Shown here: in pieces, positions 249-9,015 of the stretch
Layout of the letters: every line of letters begins with the position of its first letter
How positions within the stretch are numbered: the first letter of the stretch is position 1
NCBI GenBank assembly: GCA_016212295.1
Contig: JACRGO010000112.1
Location: forward strand, 1 to 9,015
Source of the DNA: Nitrospinota bacterium
Lineage (GTDB): Bacteria > Nitrospinota > Nitrospinia > JACRGO01
DNA length: 9,015 nucleotides
Direction: 5' to 3'
Program-made: the position numbers and the translations under genes
Notes under the pieces: model-generated
What the model was told of the DNA's origin: nothing
What the model saw: only the letters and a program-made list of their open reading frames with translations
Databases searched by the model: none

Positions 249-842
249 TCAAAAAAACATTAAACACTCTTGCACGGCCTTTCTCAACGCCATTGCCCTG
301 TGGCTGATCCTGTTTTTTTCCTCGGGCCCCAATTCCGCCATGGTTTTTCCCGTTTCCGCCGCCAGAAAAATTGGATCGTATCCGAACCCATTTTTCCCCT
401 TGGGCCTTATGGCGATGTGGCCTTCGCAAATTCCTTCACAATTATATTTTCTCCCATCCGGCAGGCTTATTGAAAGGACGCACCTGAAACGCGCCGTTCT
501 TTTGGGGTGTTGGACCGATTGCAATAATTTTAACACAATCTCGTTCCTGGCAGTAGAGTCCAAATCAGCGCCTCCGAAGCGGGCGGAGTGGACCCCTGGC
601 TTCCCATCCAGCGCGTCAATCTCAATGCCGGAATCGTCCGCCAAAACTATTTTGCCGCAAGCCTTGGCGACGCTTCTGGATTTTTTCCGCGCGTTTTCCA
701 AATAGTCTGCCCCATCCTCGGCTATTTCTCCGCTGAAGGCAATGTCGTCCAGGGACAGTATTTTAAAATTCTCCGGTCCCAGAACCGCGCGGAATTCCCG
801 GAGTTTTCCTTGATTGCGAGTGGCCACAACGATTTCCGTCAC
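249..842 (-). CDS. rdgB: XTP/dITP diphosphatase (RdgB/HAM1 family)
   Basis: Hydrolyses non-canonical purine nucleoside triphosphates (dITP, ITP, XTP) to the monophosphate and pyrophosphate, keeping deaminated bases out of DNA and RNA; cytoplasmic. The 197-residue product matches the usual family length. It shows the N-terminal TRNQGKLREF nucleotide-binding segment (residues 8-17), the acidic active-site motif ADDSGIEIDAL (68-78) followed by GKPGVHSARFGG (80-91), the GFGYDPIF motif (152-159) and the C-terminal SHRAMALRK (180-188). All key positions are present. The start is a GTG at 842-840. It lies 3 bp after the stop of the tusA-like gene, with a GGAAAGG stretch in that gene's last codons as a plausible ribosome site, so translation is probably coupled. 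It is the last gene of the minus-strand group. Confidence 0.95.
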   Translation of the reverse strand: MTEIVVATRNQGKLREFRAVLGPENFKILSLDDIAFSGEIAEDGADYLENARKKSRSVAKACGKIVLADDSGIEIDALDGKPGVHSARFGGADLDSTARNEIVLKLLQSVQHPKRTARFRCVLSISLPDGRKYNCEGICEGHIAIRPKGKNGFGYDPIFLAAETGKTMAELGPEEKNRISHRAMALRKAVQECLMFF

Positions 843-845
843 GAA

Positions 846-1091
846 TCAAGGACCTTTCCGGACCACGATTTCCCAGTCCGTGTCATTTACCTTTTCCACC
901 CTCAAGACCTCGTTCCCCTCGTTTATCATGCTCTTCGGGACGTTTTCAGTGGCCGGTTGATAATCCACTATGACCCTAAGGACCTTCCCGCTTTCCATCT
1001 CCTCCAAGGCAAGCTTTGACCGCACAAAGGTATAGGGACAAACCTCGCCCTTGATGTTCAATTCCTTGTCGATTTGAATTGCTTCAGGCAT
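846..1091 (-). CDS. TusA-like sulfurtransferase / sulfur-carrier protein
   Basis: Small 81-residue protein of the TusA/SirA/YedF family, which passes persulfide sulfur between enzymes in tRNA thiolation, molybdenum cofactor synthesis or dissimilatory sulfur metabolism. The family's active Cys-Pro is seen in KGEVCPYTFVRSKLALEEM, with Cys18. The rest follows the two-layer alpha/beta pattern (VLRVIVDYQPATENVPKSM, then NEGNEVLRVEK). Start at ATG 1091-1089 is supported by the clearest ribosome site in the window, AAGGAG at 1103-1098. The gene lies 3 bp upstream of rdgB. Having it in the same gene group as moaA would fit a sulfur-delivery role, but that is inference; paralogues in this family differ in function, so I give no symbol. 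Confidence 0.88.
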   Translation of the reverse strand: MPEAIQIDKELNIKGEVCPYTFVRSKLALEEMESGKVLRVIVDYQPATENVPKSMINEGNEVLRVEKVNDTDWEIVVRKGP

Positions 1092-1097
1092 ATTTAT

Positions 1098-1103
1098 CTC
1101 CTT
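1098..1103 (-). promoter_or_regulatory. Shine-Dalgarno site of the tusA-like gene
   Basis: The minus strand reads GAAAGGAGATAAATATG. AAGGAG ends 6 bases before the ATG, close to ideal. None of the other starts in the minus-strand group has a site this good, so this cistron may be translated the most efficiently. Confidence 0.8.
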
Positions 1104-1119
1104 TCATATCATATAGTAA

Positions 1120-1260
1120 CAGGTTTCAGGGGCCAGGTTTCAGGTATCAGGTCGGTGGCCGGTTTTCTTTTCCATGCGCCTTCTAATTGGCGGATAGAAC
1201 AGAAACCCCTTGCAGTTTTTCCCGCCCACTGACACCTGACACCTGAAACCTGAAACCTGT
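1120..1260. repeat. Inverted pair of 7-bp-period repeats (CAGGTTT family)
   Basis: The left arm at 1120-1152 reads as consecutive heptamers: CAGGTTT, CAGGGGC, CAGGTTT, CAGGTAT, CAGGT. The right arm at 1228-1260, read on the minus strand, is CAGGTTT, CAGGTTT, CAGGTGT, CAGGTGT, CAG. The arms face each other around about 75 bp of unique sequence and could form a long, imperfect hairpin in the transcript between ispH-ubiA and the tusA-like gene. They occupy much of the 182-bp gap. There are too few and too degenerate units, and no regular spacers, for CRISPR. Confidence 0.85.
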
Positions 1261-1273
1261 GAGCTATTATCTT

Positions 1274-3013
1274 TCAGTTATAAGTGTTCCACAAAAACGC
1301 GATAAAGCCGGTAAAGATGAAATTCCCGTCCACCAGCATTTCACAGCCAAAACCCTGGGCAATGATTCTTTTCTTGTACAAGAGAAGGTAACTGCATGAA
1401 TAGGCCACGGAGAGCAGTAGAATGAAGCTGATGCTGGATGTCCAATGCATGGAACCTGACACTAAAAGGGTCGCGGCAAGGAGTCCGGCTAGTATGAACA
1501 GCATTACCTTTGTTTTTTCCTTGCCGATGAGTATGGGAATGGTTTCGCGCCCCACCATTCTGTCCCCTTGGATGTCCCGCACATCATACAACAGGCATCT
1601 GATATAAACCAGTATGAAAACAAACAAAAGCGCCGTGGCCAGGGAATAATAATCAGGCGTCGGGTTTTTCGCTGAAAAAAATGGAATCAGGACCGTTGCG
1701 ACGCACCAGGCCATTGACACGGAAAGGTCCTTTGAGGAAGGTATGTCTTTCAGGCGAATGAACTTGACGGGCCTGTCGAAAAAATTTGGAATCATTTTTA
1801 TGCTGTACAAAATCCCCAAGGCCGAGGCGCCCAGCAAAAGCACAAAGGAAACAATGCCCTTGGAAAGGGCTATGCCCAGCGCGACAAGGGCGGAGACGGC
1901 GCCCACAATCAATAGTTCTCCCTTGTGTCTTGAATTGAAATGGTCCTTCATGGGGTCGTTATACCGTATGACCTCCTGATCGGTAAAGGAATTAAGGATA
2001 TACATGGAGAGAAAATAAAGGAAGGACAAAACCTCCAGTTCAGTAGACGGGTCGATGCCCATGATCATGGAGGCGGCGGAAGTCATGAATGCCGCGCCCA
2101 AGGCCACGAAGATATTGCTCATGACAAGGAATCCGGAAAAACGGGCAAGGCCCCGGACCAGCCAGTCCATTTTTCTTAACTTAATTTGTTCCAATTTGGC
2201 TACCACGCGCCGGATCATCCAATTTGGAGTTGAGGCCCCGGCCGCCACGCCAATCACAGTGAATTTCATCATCGTGTCCAGGTCGATTTCCTCCTCGGTC
2301 TCAACCATGAAGGTAGGTATCCCGGTGGATTTGGAAATCTCGGCGAGATGGGTCGTATTTGCGCTGTTCCTCCCGCCTACCACGATCATGGCGTCCACTT
2401 CTCCAGCGAGTTTCCGCACTTCTGTTTGCCTCTCATCCGTGGCGTCGCATATAGTGTTTTCCATGACGCAGTGAGGAAATTTTTCCTTGATTTTTTCCCC
2501 AAGCATCTGGTATTTTCTCCTGTCAAGCGTGGTCTGGGAGACCACGCAAACAGGGTCCATGCAAGGCAATTTTTCCACATCCTCAACGGACGAAACAACG
2601 ACCCCCTTTCCTTCCGCGAATCCTATAAGGCCGATTATTTCCGCGTGACGCGGGTCGCCTATGATGATGGTATGGTACCCTTTCCGGGCGTATTTCTTGA
2701 TAATTGACTGCACGCGCATGACCAGCGGACAGGTGGCGTCCTTGATATGGATGTTTTTTTCTTTTATCTCACGCCGTTTTTCAGGAGTGATTCCGTGGGT
2801 CCTTATGATAAGGGTCTTGTTTTCCAGATTTTCCAGTTCCTCCGCTACCTTTACATTTTTTCCTTCCAGCATATCAATGACCTGGGGGTTGTGTATGATA
2901 GGGCCGTAGGTATAGAGGGTATCATGCAGTTCCTGCGAGGTGTCCATGGCGATATCCATGGCGCGCCTGACTCCCCAGCAAAACCCTCCCTTTTCCGCGA
3001 TCTTGATTTCCAT
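1274..3013 (-). CDS. ispH: IspH (HMBPP reductase) fused to a UbiA-family prenyltransferase
   Basis: One continuous 579-codon frame joins two enzymes. Residues 1 to about 275 are 4-hydroxy-3-methylbut-2-enyl diphosphate reductase, the last MEP-pathway step making IPP and DMAPP. The three Fe-S cysteines are present (C12 in GGFCWGV, C95 in DATCP, C189 in NTICDAT), as are H41, H123 (GDPRHAE), the TVSQ-like VVSQTT segment and the substrate loop GGRNSANTTHL (213-223). From about 285 to 579 there are 8-9 hydrophobic segments and a UbiA second aspartate motif DVRDIQGD (D477, D480, D484) followed by GRETIPILIG. The first UbiA motif is degenerate: N341 and D345 remain, followed by YNDPMKDHF. I chose ATG 3013-3011, which gives the standard IspH N terminus MEIKIAEKGGFCWGV. 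A TTG further upstream at 3043 would add 10 residues encoded by intergenic repeat. There is no clear ribosome site. The prenyl acceptor is unknown. Confidence 0.92.
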   Translation of the reverse strand: MEIKIAEKGGFCWGVRRAMDIAMDTSQELHDTLYTYGPIIHNPQVIDMLEGKNVKVAEELENLENKTLIIRTHGITPEKRREIKEKNIHIKDATCPLVMRVQSIIKKYARKGYHTIIIGDPRHAEIIGLIGFAEGKGVVVSSVEDVEKLPCMDPVCVVSQTTLDRRKYQMLGEKIKEKFPHCVMENTICDATDERQTEVRKLAGEVDAMIVVGGRNSANTTHLAEISKSTGIPTFMVETEEEIDLDTMMKFTVIGVAAGASTPNWMIRRVVAKLEQIKLRKMDWLVRGLARFSGFLVMSNIFVALGAAFMTSAASMIMGIDPSTELEVLSFLYFLSMYILNSFTDQEVIRYNDPMKDHFNSRHKGELLIVGAVSALVALGIALSKGIVSFVLLLGASALGILYSIKMIPNFFDRPVKFIRLKDIPSSKDLSVSMAWCVATVLIPFFSAKNPTPDYYSLATALLFVFILVYIRCLLYDVRDIQGDRMVGRETIPILIGKEKTKVMLFILAGLLAATLLVSGSMHWTSSISFILLLSVAYSCSYLLLYKKRIIAQGFGCEMLVDGNFIFTGFIAFLWNTYN

Positions 3014-3027
3014 GTTTGTATTTAGGA

Positions 3028-3097
3028 TAGTGACGAGTGACAAATAACGAGTCCAAACAGGTTTTTCTCGTCACTTGTTACTCGTCACTCGTTACTA
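3028..3097. repeat. Inverted pair of 7-bp-period repeats (CGTCACT/CGTTACT family)
   Basis: The left arm at 3028-3051 and right arm at 3067-3097 are near-perfect reverse complements of each other, separated by only 15 bases. The unit alternates between CGTCACT and CGTTACT with a 7-bp period. Most mismatches are C/T, which would be tolerated as G-U pairs in RNA. The element fills the purN to ispH-ubiA gap and overlaps the purN stop codon at 3095-3097. In the transcript it would make a strong hairpin just after purN, and might attenuate or process the message; that is inference. Confidence 0.88.
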
Positions 3098-3745
3098 TGT
3101 TTTTAAAATGCGGACCCTCCTGCCTTCCACTTTCACACGGCCCTCCACAAACGCCTGGATAGCCAGGGGATATATCCTGTGCTCCTCCTTAAGTATCCTG
3201 GCGGACAGGGTCTCAACGTCATCGCCGTCCAACACGGGAACAACGCTTTGCATTATTATGGGACCGGTATCAACCCCTTCGTCCACGAAATGGACCGTGC
3301 AGCCGGAAAATTTCACCCCGTGTTCGAGCGCCTTCTTCTGGACGTCCAATCCAGGAAAGGCGGGAAGCAGGGCTGGATGGATATTCATTATCCTTCCGCT
3401 GAAGGAACGGATGAACCCAGGGGATAAAATCCGCATGTACCCGGCGAGGCAGACAAGGTCGGTTTCACGGCTTTTTAGAAGGTCAACCAACGCCGCGTCG
3501 AATTCCATCCTGGCGGGATATGCCTTTGGATCAAGAAAGACGGCTTCGCTGCCATGCTTTCTCGCCCTCTCCAGTCCATGCGCGCTTTGCACGTTGCTTA
3601 CCACGACACGAAGAGAGGCGCTGATGGCGCCGCCTTCCACCGCGTCAATGATCGCCTGCAGGTTGGAGCCCCTTCCTGAGATTAAAACAGCTATATTTTT
3701 TTTGGAGTTTGCCTGGCTCAATGATGGAAGTAAGAGAATATTCAA
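3095..3745 (-). CDS. purN: Phosphoribosylglycinamide formyltransferase 1 (GART)
   Basis: Transfers a formyl group from 10-formyltetrahydrofolate to GAR, the third step of de novo purine synthesis; cytoplasmic. Of 216 residues from the longest start, homology begins near residue 16 with KNIAVLISGRGSNLQ (GRGSN binds the phosphate of GAR). LAGYMRIL (100-107) and the catalytic triad follow: N121 and H123 in MNIHPALLPAFPG, and D159 in HFVDEGVDTGP. The end VEGRVKVEGRRVRI is typical. The start is uncertain: TTG at 3745-3743 lies inside a heptamer repeat, an in-frame TGA is just upstream, no ATG or GTG precedes the conserved region, and a second TTG lies at codon 9. No ribosome site is visible at either, so the first 10-14 residues may be wrong. 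The identity of the enzyme is not in doubt. Confidence 0.95.
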   Translation of the reverse strand: MNILLLPSLSQANSKKNIAVLISGRGSNLQAIIDAVEGGAISASLRVVVSNVQSAHGLERARKHGSEAVFLDPKAYPARMEFDAALVDLLKSRETDLVCLAGYMRILSPGFIRSFSGRIMNIHPALLPAFPGLDVQKKALEHGVKFSGCTVHFVDEGVDTGPIIMQSVVPVLDGDDVETLSARILKEEHRIYPLAIQAFVEGRVKVEGRRVRILKT

Positions 3746-5075: not shown

Positions 5076-8000
5076 ATGAAAAAAAATCCCTTCTATTTCA
5101 GGGTAATACCCATCGACGCGCCCTTTTGCGACCGGGAGTATGAACTGAACGCCCTCACCTCCCACGCCGTGTCCAACACCAACGTGGTTCTCTATTCTCC
5201 CCGGCGCTACGGCAAAACCTCTCTTGTGGCCAGGGTCCAGGACCAACTGGGAAAAAAGGGCCTGGAAACCATCTATATCGATATCTCCAATTGTTCCTCC
5301 TGCGATGAAATTTCTGAAAAGATCGCGGTCAGTATCTACGGCCTCGCCCGAAAAAAAGAATCGCTTCTGCAAAAACTCACCAGCGCCGTCAAAGCCTGGA
5401 GACCGGTTTTTACCCCGGATCCCGCCGGAGGCGTCAGTCTGAGTGTGCAACCAGCCTCGGGGAAAAGAGGGATAGAACTTCTGCAAGAGACCATGGAGTC
5501 GTTTAATAAAATCCTGAAAGAAGACGACCGCCAATTCAACATCGTCATTGACGAATTTCAGGAGATTGCCGGAGTCAAGGACGGAAGCAAAATAGAAGCC
5601 TTATTGAGGGAGCATATCCAACATCAGGAAAACGTCTCCTGGTTCTTTCTCGGAAGCAGGCGAAGGCTTCTCGTTGACATGTTCAACCAAAAAGACCGTC
5701 CCTTTTATAAAAGCAGCATCAACTTTGAGCTGCCGTCCCTGCCAAGGGAAAAAGCCATGGAGTTCGTCATGGCGCGTTTTAAGGAGGGCGGCAAGGAGTG
5801 TCCCCTCGAAATCGCGGAAAGGATCGCCGAAACCACCCAATGCTATCCCTATTATGTCCAGAGGCTTCCCTTTTCCATGTACGAAGTTTCAACCGGAGAA
5901 GACATAACGGACGCCGACTTCACCGCAGGGTTTACAAGGATGATGACCGAGGAAGGGGTCATATTCAGCGCCATGGAGAAGGCCCTTCCGGCGGGACAGA
6001 AAAATCTTTTAAAAGCCCTTGCCTCGGAGCCCACGGATAAGCCCTATGCGGTTTCCTACACAGGCAGGCACAATCTCGGCTCCCTGGGCAGCATACAGAA
6101 TGCGGTGAAAAGACTTGAGGAGCTTGATTATATCGAAAGGGACAAGGAGAAATGTTATAGGATTGCCGACCCCATGTTCGCCTCCTGGCTCGCATCGGGC
6201 AAGGAAGTCCCTTATTCCGCGAATATCGCCAATATGACGGCGGAAAACGTCCCGGCAACTTCCTCCCTCAAGGGGCTGAACGTTCAAAAGGCGATGCAGA
6301 GCGGAGTTGCGGAAATAAACGGGTATAAAACGAAGGAGTTTGAAGAGGTCAAGGGAATCCTGCTCCGGGAAAAATCCGACAAGCTCAAAGTAAAAATCTT
6401 TTTATCTTATTCCCACGACGATAAAATCCTCAAAAGCAGGTTCTTCGAGCTTATTCGCAACCGGCTGAAAACCTCAAAACTCTACGACTTTTCCTTTTCC
6501 GTTGACACGGACATCCTCGTTGGCGAAAAGTGGCATGATGAAATTCAAAAAATGGTAAAGCAATGTGATTTCGGACTCCTTCTCCTGTCCACAAAATTCC
6601 TGAACAGCGAATATATCTCAAACCATGAACTTCCCCGGTTGCTTGAAAAATGTATTCCCGTGGCCCTGGACATCCTCGACTTCAAGCGCCAGGATTTAAA
6701 AGGACTCGAGGAGAACCAGATATTCCGTTACGAAGAAAAGGCCTTCAGCGAGTTGAGGGGAGCGAACCTCACCCGCTTCGTGAACGAACTTGCCAGGCAG
6801 GTGGAGGAAAAGGTCGAAAAGGCGCAAAAAGCCCAGCCCTTCCCGCCGCAAGAGGAAATGGAAGAGCTTTACGAAAAGGCGGGAATAAGAGGCGCCCTTC
6901 AAGGCTATGCCCTGTTGAAGCAAATGCACGAACGGCGCTCAAAAGGATACGAAGAATATTTATTCACCCATCAAAGGGGAATCAGGGGGGCTATAACGCA
7001 TCAGACCCAGGAGAGCGGCGGGGACAAGGTCAACGTCCTTGAGCATCTTCATGCCTGGGCCGTGAATGGCGATAACCCCTTCTTCGCCCTCCTGGGCGAC
7101 TTCGGCGCTGGCAAGACCTTCACCTGCCGGATGCTGGCGCGAAAAATCACCGAAGAGCACAACAGTATGCCCGATGAAATCCCCCTCTGTATCTATATAG
7201 ACCTGCGGTTCGTGTCCACCCGCAACAAGGAAAACAGGGTCCCCTCCCTTGTTGAAATCCTGGATGACGCAATCCGGCAGGCCAAGGACCCCCTGGACAA
7301 ATCCATCGTCAAGGCGGAAGACCTCATCCAACTCACGCGCCAAGGGAAGGCCATGATAATTTATGACGGACTGGACGAAAAGACCGTCCACTTCACCCCG
7401 GACGAAACCAACGAGTTCGTCCGGCAATTGTGGAGCATCCGGGAAATCCGCCCTGAAAAGGACGAGAAGGGGCCGCGACAAGGAAAAATCCTCGTCAGTT
7501 GCAGGACCCATTATTTCCGGGACGTCATCGAGCAAAACAGCCTCTTTCTCGGCAAGGACCGGAAAGGCAGGGGGACAAGGGAGTTTTCCTCCTGCGTGAT
7601 CCTTCCCTTTGACGACAACCAGATCAGGGATTATCTGAAAAAGAGGCTCGGTTGCGATGATGCGGAAATCCACCGGCTTATGGACCTCATGGGCAGCGTC
7701 CATAACCTTACGGAACTTGCCCGTAGACCCTACCTCCTCTCCCTCATGAGCGAGTTTTTCCCGGACATCGAGAAGATGGGCACGGGGGGGCAAATCACCA
7801 ACACCGCGAGCCTTTATGAATTGATGGTCCAGAATTGGCTTTCGCGGGATGATGGCAAGCATGAATTCGGGGTCCCCCACAAAAAAACGCTCATGGAGGC
7901 CATGGCCCTGGAAATCCATCAGCGGGGGGAAAGGAGCATCAAGACCGACGACCTGGAGGAGTGGCTCGACCTATGGCTCCTCCAAAACCCAGCCATCCAA

Positions 8001-9015
8001 TCCGCGTACGCGAACATCAACCGGGAGACGCTGAAAAAGGACCTGAGGACCGCGACCTTCATCATCCGGGAAGAGGACAAGGATTTTCGATTTGCCCACA
8101 CCTCCCTTCAGGAATATTTCCTTGCCCGGCAAATCATAAACCTCCTCTCCCGCAGGGCCTTTGATATGGCAAAGGACATTCAGGGACTCTCCATGCCCTT
8201 TCCCTCATGGGAGACCCTTGATTTCGCGGTGGAAATTCTCGCCAACGAAAAGGGAAAGGCCGCCTTCTGCTTTAAAAACATGGAAGCGCTCCTGGAAAAG
8301 GGTTACGAAAAAGGAGCGAGCGAGTTGTGTCTCGGATTGTGGCAGAGGCTCCGGGACAGGGGGATGGATACCCCGAACCCAAAGACGGTTCGACTGGAAG
8401 GGGCTTTGCTTAAGGGATGGAAGATTCGCGGCCTGGATTTCTCAAAAGCGGTTTTTGACAGGGCCAACCTGGAGGATGCCCGATTCGAGGAGGTCCAACT
8501 CCCAACCGCTTCCTTTGTCTCCGCCACCATGTTCAACGCCGAATTCCTGCATTGCAACCTTGCCGGAGGGGATTTTCCCTCCGCCTTCGCCCAGGGTTCC
8601 GTGTGGAAGGAGTGCAACCTTTCCTCAACCAAATGGGAGGGGGCCAACACCAGGTTGGCGGACTTTGTCCGATGCCAGATGAAGGAGGCCACCCTCGCGC
8701 CGGAAGAAGACAGGGATATCGTTTTCTGTGACGGCATGGAAGCGACCCCAAGGCCCCGCGATTTTCAGCTTGACACCTTTACCGGGCATTCTTTCTTCGG
8801 GGTACGTTCCTGCGCCGTAAGTCCCGATAACCGGAGGATTGTCTCCGCTTCATACGACAATACCCTCAAGGTCTGGGACATTAAAAGCGGAAAATGCCTC
8901 AAGACCTTCCTTCAACTGCCGGAAGGGGAAACGGCGGCATGGGACGGTGAAGGCAAGAAACTCCTTTCCTCCTCCCCTAACGCATGGAGATGGATCGGCC
9001 TTAGTTCCGGCATGA
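5076..9015 (+). CDS. Giant NLR-like protein: STAND ATPase - TIR - NACHT - pentapeptide - WD40 (3' end outside window)
   Basis: 1313 codons are open to the window end. The ATG at 5076 is the first possible start (in-frame TGA at 5070-5072) and gives NPFYFRVIPIDAPFCDREYE, a typical start of COG1672-type ATPases; the ribosome site is weak. Domains: ATPase 1 with Walker A SPRRYGKTSL (41-50) and Walker B IVIDEFQ (156-162); winged helix about 306-375; linker; TIR about 437-580 (IFLSYSHDD 441-449, GEKWHDEI with W486, LLLLSTKF, and E518 in SNHEL at the NADase glutamate position); NACHT from about 640 with Walker A GDFGAGKT (674-681), Walker B DGLDE (764-768), sensor-like VSCRTHYF (807-814) and the C-terminal FRFAHTSLQEYFLARQ (1004 on); pentapeptide-like repeats about 1105-1208 (LDFSKAVFDRANLEDARFEE); a WD40 repeat from about 1229 with TGH (H1238) and LKVWD (W1267). 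No signal peptide or membrane segment is visible. Probably an immune sensor-effector; the function is inferred from domains. Confidence 0.93.
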   Translation, partial: MKKNPFYFRVIPIDAPFCDREYELNALTSHAVSNTNVVLYSPRRYGKTSLVARVQDQLGKKGLETIYIDISNCSSCDEISEKIAVSIYGLARKKESLLQKLTSAVKAWRPVFTPDPAGGVSLSVQPASGKRGIELLQETMESFNKILKEDDRQFNIVIDEFQEIAGVKDGSKIEALLREHIQHQENVSWFFLGSRRRLLVDMFNQKDRPFYKSSINFELPSLPREKAMEFVMARFKEGGKECPLEIAERIAETTQCYPYYVQRLPFSMYEVSTGEDITDADFTAGFTRMMTEEGVIFSAMEKALPAGQKNLLKALASEPTDKPYAVSYTGRHNLGSLGSIQNAVKRLEELDYIERDKEKCYRIADPMFASWLASGKEVPYSANIANMTAENVPATSSLKGLNVQKAMQSGVAEINGYKTKEFEEVKGILLREKSDKLKVKIFLSYSHDDKILKSRFFELIRNRLKTSKLYDFSFSVDTDILVGEKWHDEIQKMVKQCDFGLLLLSTKFLNSEYISNHELPRLLEKCIPVALDILDFKRQDLKGLEENQIFRYEEKAFSELRGANLTRFVNELARQVEEKVEKAQKAQPFPPQEEMEELYEKAGIRGALQGYALLKQMHERRSKGYEEYLFTHQRGIRGAITHQTQESGGDKVNVLEHLHAWAVNGDNPFFALLGDFGAGKTFTCRMLARKITEEHNSMPDEIPLCIYIDLRFVSTRNKENRVPSLVEILDDAIRQAKDPLDKSIVKAEDLIQLTRQGKAMIIYDGLDEKTVHFTPDETNEFVRQLWSIREIRPEKDEKGPRQGKILVSCRTHYFRDVIEQNSLFLGKDRKGRGTREFSSCVILPFDDNQIRDYLKKRLGCDDAEIHRLMDLMGSVHNLTELARRPYLLSLMSEFFPDIEKMGTGGQITNTASLYELMVQNWLSRDDGKHEFGVPHKKTLMEAMALEIHQRGERSIKTDDLEEWLDLWLLQNPAIQSAYANINRETLKKDLRTATFIIREEDKDFRFAHTSLQEYFLARQIINLLSRRAFDMAKDIQGLSMPFPSWETLDFAVEILANEKGKAAFCFKNMEALLEKGYEKGASELCLGLWQRLRDRGMDTPNPKTVRLEGALLKGWKIRGLDFSKAVFDRANLEDARFEEVQLPTASFVSATMFNAEFLHCNLAGGDFPSAFAQGSVWKECNLSSTKWEGANTRLADFVRCQMKEATLAPEEDRDIVFCDGMEATPRPRDFQLDTFTGHSFFGVRSCAVSPDNRRIVSASYDNTLKVWDIKSGKCLKTFLQLPEGETAAWDGEGKKLLSSSPNAWRWIGLSSGM

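What the first reader, a model, noticed from the sequence alone, without database searches (positions are those of the whole stretch)
5076..9015. NLR-like protein with two separate P-loop NTPases flanking a TIR domain
The reading frame encodes a COG1672-type STAND ATPase plus winged helix, then TIR, then a complete NACHT NTPase, then pentapeptide and WD40 sensor-type repeats. Known bacterial NLR-like immune proteins (Avs, bNACHT, TIR-STAND) usually follow effector - one NTPase - sensor. Here a second, differently classed NTPase sits before the TIR effector, and both Walker A and Walker B sets look intact. This could be a two-switch immune protein, in which the NACHT/WD40 half senses and the N-terminal ATPase gates or oligomerises the TIR. 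Membership in the STAND/TIR families is clear from motifs; the immune role is inference.
Basis: partly seen in the sequence, partly recalled or inferred. Interest (0 to 1): 0.85.

Follow-up and report, generated by a model that had tools for sequence, protein, structure and literature searches.

The report
TIR immune-like protein with two NTPases
This bacterial gene really does join two different, apparently intact ATP-driven switch modules around one TIR (NAD-destroying type) domain; the same joined protein recurs in about a dozen green sulfur bacteria, so it is a conserved but apparently undescribed variant of bacterial NLR-like immune proteins.

Summary
One uninterrupted frame (5076 to contig end, 1313 aa) encodes an ATPase_2/COG1672 ATPase with winged helix, a TIR domain, a NACHT module, pentapeptide repeats and one WD40 repeat. 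It is not an assembly join: the same order occurs full length in 8 of 98 genomes of a class that includes Chlorobiaceae (50-56% identity), and broken by contig ends or decay in about four more. Both Walker A/B sets and the TIR glutamate are conserved; the ATPase module is under purifying selection (dN/dS 0.05-0.20). The predicted fold shows two separate STAND-type units, one like archaeal ATPases and ORC/Cdc6, one like animal NLRs, with disordered linkers. The ATPase descends from a widespread stand-alone gene of about 380 aa. Trees support one fusion, then loss in at least two lineages. The host (same genus as a Nitrospinia MAG) probably acquired the gene horizontally. Likely mechanism (inferred): the NACHT/repeat half senses and clusters the TIR for abortive NAD loss; the N-terminal ATPase is an accessory second input. 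That it gates the TIR is not shown, and relatives without it argue it is not essential. The gene is cut at the contig end. New variant of a known kind.

The parts
5076..9015 (+). whole fused gene, 1313 codons, open at the 3' end (contig end)
   Evidence: full-length homologues
5076..6203 (+). aa 1-376: ATPase_2/COG1672 STAND-type ATPase module including C-terminal winged helix (about aa 303-374)
   Evidence: Pfam; PDB 2FNA/2QEN by sequence and by fold; DSSP
5193..5228 (+). Walker A of the first NTPase, aa 40-51 (YSPRRYGKTSLV, K47)
   Evidence: invariant in 14 homologues and in all fused relatives that cover it
5535..5567 (+). Walker B of the first NTPase, aa 154-164 (FNIVIDEFQEI, D159 E160)
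6204..6383 (+). aa 377-436: predicted disordered linker with a short motif (around aa 403-421) kept in fused and ATPase-less relatives
   Evidence: pLDDT mostly below 50; alignment
6384..6752 (+). aa 437-559: TIR domain; putative catalytic E518 at 6627-6629
   Evidence: Pfam TIR_2 4.9e-11; E518 conserved in all 18 family rows
6837..7031 (+). aa 588-652: second predicted disordered linker
7071..8360 (+). aa 666-1095: NACHT NTPase module (Walker A GDFGAGKTF with K680 at 7113-7115; Walker B DGLDE aa 764-768 at 7365-7379)
   Evidence: Pfam; motifs; fold matches to NLRC4, NOD2, NLRP9, NLRP3
8385..8699 (+). aa 1104-1208: pentapeptide-repeat beta-helix
   Evidence: Pfam; NCBIfam; repeated short strands with pLDDT about 95 up to aa 1200, where the model ends
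8769..8909 (+). aa 1232-1278: the only WD40 repeat on this contig
   Evidence: Pfam
8910..9015 (+). aa 1279-1313: conserved C-terminal tail, cut by the contig end; the last 46 bases are shared exactly with contig C136

Best explanation
A single-gene, NLR-like immune receptor. Most likely the C-terminal pentapeptide/WD40 region senses an invader cue, the NACHT module exchanges nucleotide and oligomerises, and the clustered TIR domains hydrolyse NAD+ (or make a cADPR-type signal), giving abortive infection. The N-terminal ATPase_2-winged-helix unit is a second, complete STAND/ORC-like module, captured once from a stand-alone ATPase gene; it most likely acts as an accessory second input (co-sensor or brake) on the same TIR effector rather than as the essential switch. 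Shown here: the architecture, its recurrence, intact motifs, purifying selection, a single fused clade in the N-terminal tree, and ATPase-less relatives nested among fused ones. Inferred: ATPase activity, oligomerisation, NADase activity, antiphage role, and the accessory role of the N-terminal unit.
For: Domain order; same order full length in eight other genomes and partly in about four more; both Walker sets and TIR E518 conserved; dN/dS of the ATPase module 0.05-0.20, like NACHT 0.09-0.15; fused N-terminal modules monophyletic 100/99 within stand-alone ATPases; ATPase-less forms nested within fused ones and without the ATPase elsewhere in the genome; two well-folded units with disordered linkers; N-terminal unit matches 2QEN/2FNA at Z 27.0/25.5, then ORC/Cdc6 and apoptosome/resistosome NTPases; second unit matches animal NLR NACHT modules; effector-NACHT-sensor layout known from bNACHT proteins (PMC12169576).
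Against: No experiment. PADLOC has no defence model covering the protein; only weak partial hits such as ThsB TIR 4.1e-7. The gene sits among housekeeping genes, not in a visible defence island. Only one WD40 repeat and no stop on this contig. In the group that lost the ATPase the TIR is also strongly diverged (TIR 49% vs NACHT 84%), which could mean that ATPase and TIR are functionally coupled.
Confidence: 0.5

Rival explanations
1. Two-switch protein: the N-terminal ATPase directly gates or oligomerises the TIR, and both ATP sites are needed for output.
For: Both NTPase sites are conserved and under purifying selection; the N-terminal unit has the NBD-helical-winged-helix layout of ring-forming STAND proteins; loss of the ATPase in the G261/G371 group coincides with a strongly diverged TIR.
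Against: Six relatives lack the ATPase and no match exists elsewhere in those genomes; in G195/G196 the ATPase is kept next to a very different TIR; the linkers are disordered and no fixed contact is predicted (pTM 0.44).
Confidence: 0.25
2. Integrated bait: the N-terminal module mimics a widespread stand-alone cellular or plasmid ATPase that invaders attack or mimic, and tampering with it triggers the NACHT-TIR half, as in plant NLRs with integrated domains.
For: The module comes from a widespread stand-alone gene also found on plasmids and viral contigs; plant precedent (PMC5067614, title and abstract).
Against: Baits often lose catalytic residues, whereas here they are all kept; no invader factor acting on such ATPases is known from anything found here.
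Confidence: 0.12
3. A non-immune signalling or developmental scaffold protein that uses the same modules.
For: No defence-island context; no PADLOC model covers it.
Against: Patchy distribution (8-12 of 98 genomes of the class), apparent transfer between phyla, varying repeat numbers and changing TIR are typical of conflict proteins.
Confidence: 0.12
4. Assembly or sequencing artefact joining two neighbouring genes.
For: The N-terminal family is otherwise a stand-alone gene of about 380 aa; the genome is a draft of 237 contigs.
Against: The same fusion is full length in eight other genomes, with a recognisable motif in the linker, and the N-terminal and TIR-NACHT trees show the same groupings.
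Confidence: 0.01

Closest known systems
Bacterial NACHT proteins (bNACHT, e.g. bNACHT25; PMC12169576)
   Same: N-terminal effector, central NACHT, C-terminal sensing part; single gene
   Different: A second, differently classed STAND-type ATPase precedes the TIR; sensor made of pentapeptide and WD40 repeats
TIR-NACHT-pentapeptide-WD40 protein of G043 (L044) and the ATPase-less relatives (L189-L193)
   Same: Same order from the TIR onwards; L189-L193 are about 49-52% identical there
   Different: No N-terminal ATPase
Stand-alone ATPase_2 family (PF01637; PDB 2FNA, 2QEN)
   Same: Same fold, same motifs, same length as aa 1-376; closest stand-alone genes 46-50% identical
   Different: Not fused to TIR-NACHT in any of about 100 loci looked at outside the fused group
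nSTAND-TIR protein of G120 (L048, 521 aa)
   Same: An NTPase module placed before a TIR domain
   Different: Different NTPase class, no NACHT and no repeats
STAND conflict proteins reviewed in PMC8195603 and PMC7159879
   Same: TIR, NACHT or MNS NTPases, pentapeptide and propeller repeats as interchangeable modules
   Different: The passages read describe one central NTPase per protein (NACHT or MNS or nSTAND1); two active STAND units around one TIR were not found there

Membership tests
Bacterial NLR-like (bNACHT-type) proteins | central NACHT module with intact Walker A and B | tested here: met
   Pfam NACHT 1.3e-6; motifs conserved in 18 rows; fold matches NLRC4, NOD2, NLRP9
Bacterial NLR-like (bNACHT-type) proteins | effector domain N-terminal to the NACHT | tested here: met
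   TIR_2 at 441-559
Bacterial NLR-like (bNACHT-type) proteins | C-terminal sensor region | tested here: met
   pentapeptide repeats and one WD40 plus tail; relatives have more WD40 repeats
Bacterial NLR-like (bNACHT-type) proteins | tripartite layout with a single NTPase | tested here: not met
   an additional ATPase_2 module at 1-376 with intact motifs
Bacterial NLR-like (bNACHT-type) proteins | protection against phage | not testable with these tools
   needs an experiment
ATPase_2 / COG1672 stand-alone ATPases (N-terminal module only) | sequence and fold of the family including the winged helix | tested here: met
   PF01637 3.7e-15; 2FNA/2QEN by profile and fold Z 25-27
TIR NADases | TIR fold and catalytic glutamate | tested here: met
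   TIR_2 above cut-off; E518 conserved in 18 rows
TIR NADases | NAD+ hydrolysis | not testable with these tools
   needs an assay
Avs (antiviral STAND) | match to an Avs family model | tested here: inconclusive
   no Avs model among the PADLOC hits at E 1 or better, but the 2023 library may lack variants; Avs4 appears at Z 9.6 among the NACHT fold matches
Thoeris ThsB | ThsB TIR with a ThsA partner gene | tested here: inconclusive
   ThsB model matches aa 440-525 only (4.1e-7); upstream neighbours are housekeeping, the downstream side is off the contig

The most novel reading that the evidence does not exclude
A dual-input immune receptor: an ORC/Cdc6-like STAND ATPase with winged helix senses nucleic acid (or an invader factor) at one end, a NACHT/pentapeptide/WD40 unit senses a second cue at the other, and both must agree, through two ATP cycles, before the TIR between them is licensed.
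Probability: 0.18. Interest if true: 0.85.

Novelty: new variant of a known kind. Interest (0 to 1): 0.6.

Why it matters
Bacterial and eukaryotic NLRs are understood as one NTPase switch between one sensor and one effector. A conserved family with two complete STAND-type modules around one TIR, together with natural relatives that lost the first module and others whose TIR differs strongly, offers a ready comparison set for testing whether an immune receptor can integrate two ATP-dependent inputs. Full-length fused copies exist in other assemblies, so bench tests need not start from the truncated contig.

Tried and rejected
Single-protein scan of genome contigs with aa 1-1100 found nothing; the chosen peptide stretches were probably too specific, and the alignment-based scan succeeded. 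Assembly-join idea rejected. Contig contamination by a Chlorobia bin considered: MoaA next to the gene is 76% identical to the same-genus genome and 32% to Chlorobia-class genomes, so the contig fits its bin and the gene was probably transferred. Pre-fusion status of the ATPase-less forms considered and disfavoured: they nest inside fused ones, although some supports are modest (80-99) and the root is uncertain. Internal restart of translation before the TIR: ATG at aa 387 and 407, no clear ribosome site by eye. Defence neighbourhood or conserved partner of the stand-alone ATPase: none seen by eye in 13 loci. No solved structure is a clear sequence relative of the TIR or NACHT parts. The fold lists are filled by one domain each (1-378; 220-665), so the TIR fold was barely tested. 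Papers describing two STAND NTPases around a TIR: none found in the openly licensed library, which misses most subscription journals.

Full report
What is in the sequence. The window is the whole of contig C64 of a 3.74 Mb draft genome in 237 contigs. On the + strand one frame opens at ATG 5076 and stays open to the contig end, 1313 aa. Pfam places ATPase_2 at 17-262 (3.7e-15), TIR_2 at 441-559 (4.9e-11), AAA_22/NPHP3_N/NACHT at about 658-788 (NACHT 1.3e-6, just above its cut-off), pentapeptide repeats from 1107 and one WD40 repeat at 1232-1268. Third-position GC is similar on both sides of the first junction.

The 3' end is missing. The last 46 bases of the contig also occur on contig C136, whose end encodes about seven WD40 repeats and a version of the same tail. 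In the Chlorobiaceae relative L057 the tail ends with a stop about 15 codons beyond the point where our contig stops. So the window gene probably ends just past 9015 and carries only one WD40 repeat, or part of its array was lost in assembly; this is unresolved.

The N-terminal part is a true, complete P-loop module. It aligns along its full length (aa 1-376) with stand-alone genes of about 380 aa in many phyla. Walker A (R43, G46, K47), Walker B (D159, E160) and other positions are invariant among 14 homologues. A profile finds PDB 2FNA (8e-22) and 2QEN (2e-18) over the module including the winged helix. The predicted structure gives Z 27.0 and 25.5 to 2QEN and 2FNA, then ORC/Cdc6 proteins, CED-4, Dark and plant resistosomes at Z of roughly 16-21.

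The fusion is real and recurs. The alignment-based scan of public genomes kept 80 loci; one, L057 (uncultured Chlorobiaceae), encodes the same order, 53% identical over the aligned length; its own WD40 array contains a run of N. A search of the class of G359, 98 genomes including those of L057 and L058, gave full-length fused proteins in eight (G359, G418, G214, G195, G254, G438, G414, G512), with further copies cut by contig ends in G402 (two), G196 and probably G197, and a decayed remnant in G547. By contrast, in 395 genomes of the phylum of a Syntrophus MAG, 24 had the N-terminal module at the threshold used (1e-40) and none was fused.

Evolution. In a tree of N-terminal modules the fused ones form a single clade (100/99) among stand-alone ATPases (also with fewer fused rows). 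Six genomes (G449, G261, G371, G571, G234, G485) have the TIR-NACHT-pentapeptide part without the ATPase, and no match to the ATPase part elsewhere at E 0.001. In the TIR-NACHT and NACHT trees these fall inside fused groups, which favours loss in at least two lineages; one of the six (G449) looks broken further downstream. A short motif before the TIR is kept in fused and unfused forms alike. The TIR of G195 is only 49% identical to that of G359 while ATPase and NACHT are 75% and 71%; the TIR of G371 is 49% identical to that of G438 while NACHT is 84% (trees). This fits exchange or fast divergence of the effector; recombination was not tested formally. dN/dS for related pairs is 0.05-0.20 in the ATPase module, 0.09-0.15 in NACHT and 0.10-0.32 in TIR (pairs with near-saturated synonymous change are rough). 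The number of WD40 repeats varies between relatives.

Host. The same-genus genome G001 holds an ATPase gene identical to one on a record named Nitrospinia bacterium OFTM173, on a contig of the same length, so the window organism belongs to the genus of that MAG. MoaA beside the gene is 76% identical to G001 and 32% to the two Chlorobia-class genomes tested. The fused gene was not found in the other 76 genomes searched in the phylum. Horizontal transfer is the simplest reading; its direction is not proven.

Structure. AlphaFold2 of aa 1-1200 (44 sequences) gives mean pLDDT 81, with most of the ATPase module and the pentapeptide helix above 90, low-confidence linkers at 377-433 (with one short helix) and 588-652, and pTM 0.44, so no fixed arrangement of the modules is predicted. 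A second model of the TIR-NACHT part (mean pLDDT 73) matches NLRC4, NOD2, NLRP9 and other animal NLRs best (Foldseek about 1e-9 to 1e-7; Z about 10-14, mostly with large rmsd over some 330 residues, so similar parts in a different arrangement), with Avs4 lower down.

How it most likely works. By analogy with bNACHT proteins (effector-NACHT-sensor; PMC12169576) and with TIR activation by induced proximity (title and abstract of PMC7414095), the C-terminal repeats would sense, the NACHT would oligomerise, and the TIRs would consume NAD+. The N-terminal unit is a second STAND/ORC-like module. One published proposal is that STAND NTPases serve either as assembly switches or as nucleic-acid sensors, the latter proposed there mainly for inactive versions (PMC8195603). 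Because relatives persist without the module, I rank it as an accessory second input above an obligatory gate. All activities are inferred.

Verdict. This is a conserved, apparently undescribed variant of bacterial NLR-like proteins. The main limits are the truncated gene, the absence of experiments, and a literature search confined to openly licensed papers.

Noticed in passing
G000 contig C136 (L009), 5955-6932, - strand: The end of another contig of the same genome encodes about seven near-identical WD40 repeats plus a version of the same C-terminal tail (87% identical over 80 aa); its 5' part was not found. A second copy or a strain variant.
   Followed up: partly
window 1274-3043, - strand: One frame of 589 aa fuses IspH/LytB (13-285) to a UbiA-type prenyltransferase (374-553).
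   Followed up: no
L148/L144 (G196 contig C75): In G196 a roughly 120 bp insert with inverted ends (TCATTCCATTTC...GAAATGGAATCA) sits in the linker before the TIR, and the ATPase part also carries a frameshift; MITE-like, read by eye.
   Followed up: partly
L037 6515-7702 and 7956-9230 (Geobacter anodireducens plasmid pSD): Two stand-alone ATPase_2 genes in tandem on a plasmid; they are distant from each other in the tree.
   Followed up: no
L048 957-2519, - strand (G120): A different protein with an nSTAND-type NTPase before a C-terminal TIR domain, 521 aa: another case of NTPase preceding TIR.
   Followed up: no
L160 (G449), 793-3618, - strand: The ATPase-less copy of G449 is interrupted between the pentapeptide part and the WD40 tail, so it may be decaying.
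   Followed up: no
L179-L194 (family loci): The TIR domain looks exchanged or fast-evolving between two more stable NTPase modules (G195/G196 and the G261/G371 group).
   Followed up: partly
window 3067-3096: A 14 bp direct repeat (2.1 copies, CTCGTCACTCGTTA) between the ispH-ubiA and purN-like frames.
   Followed up: no
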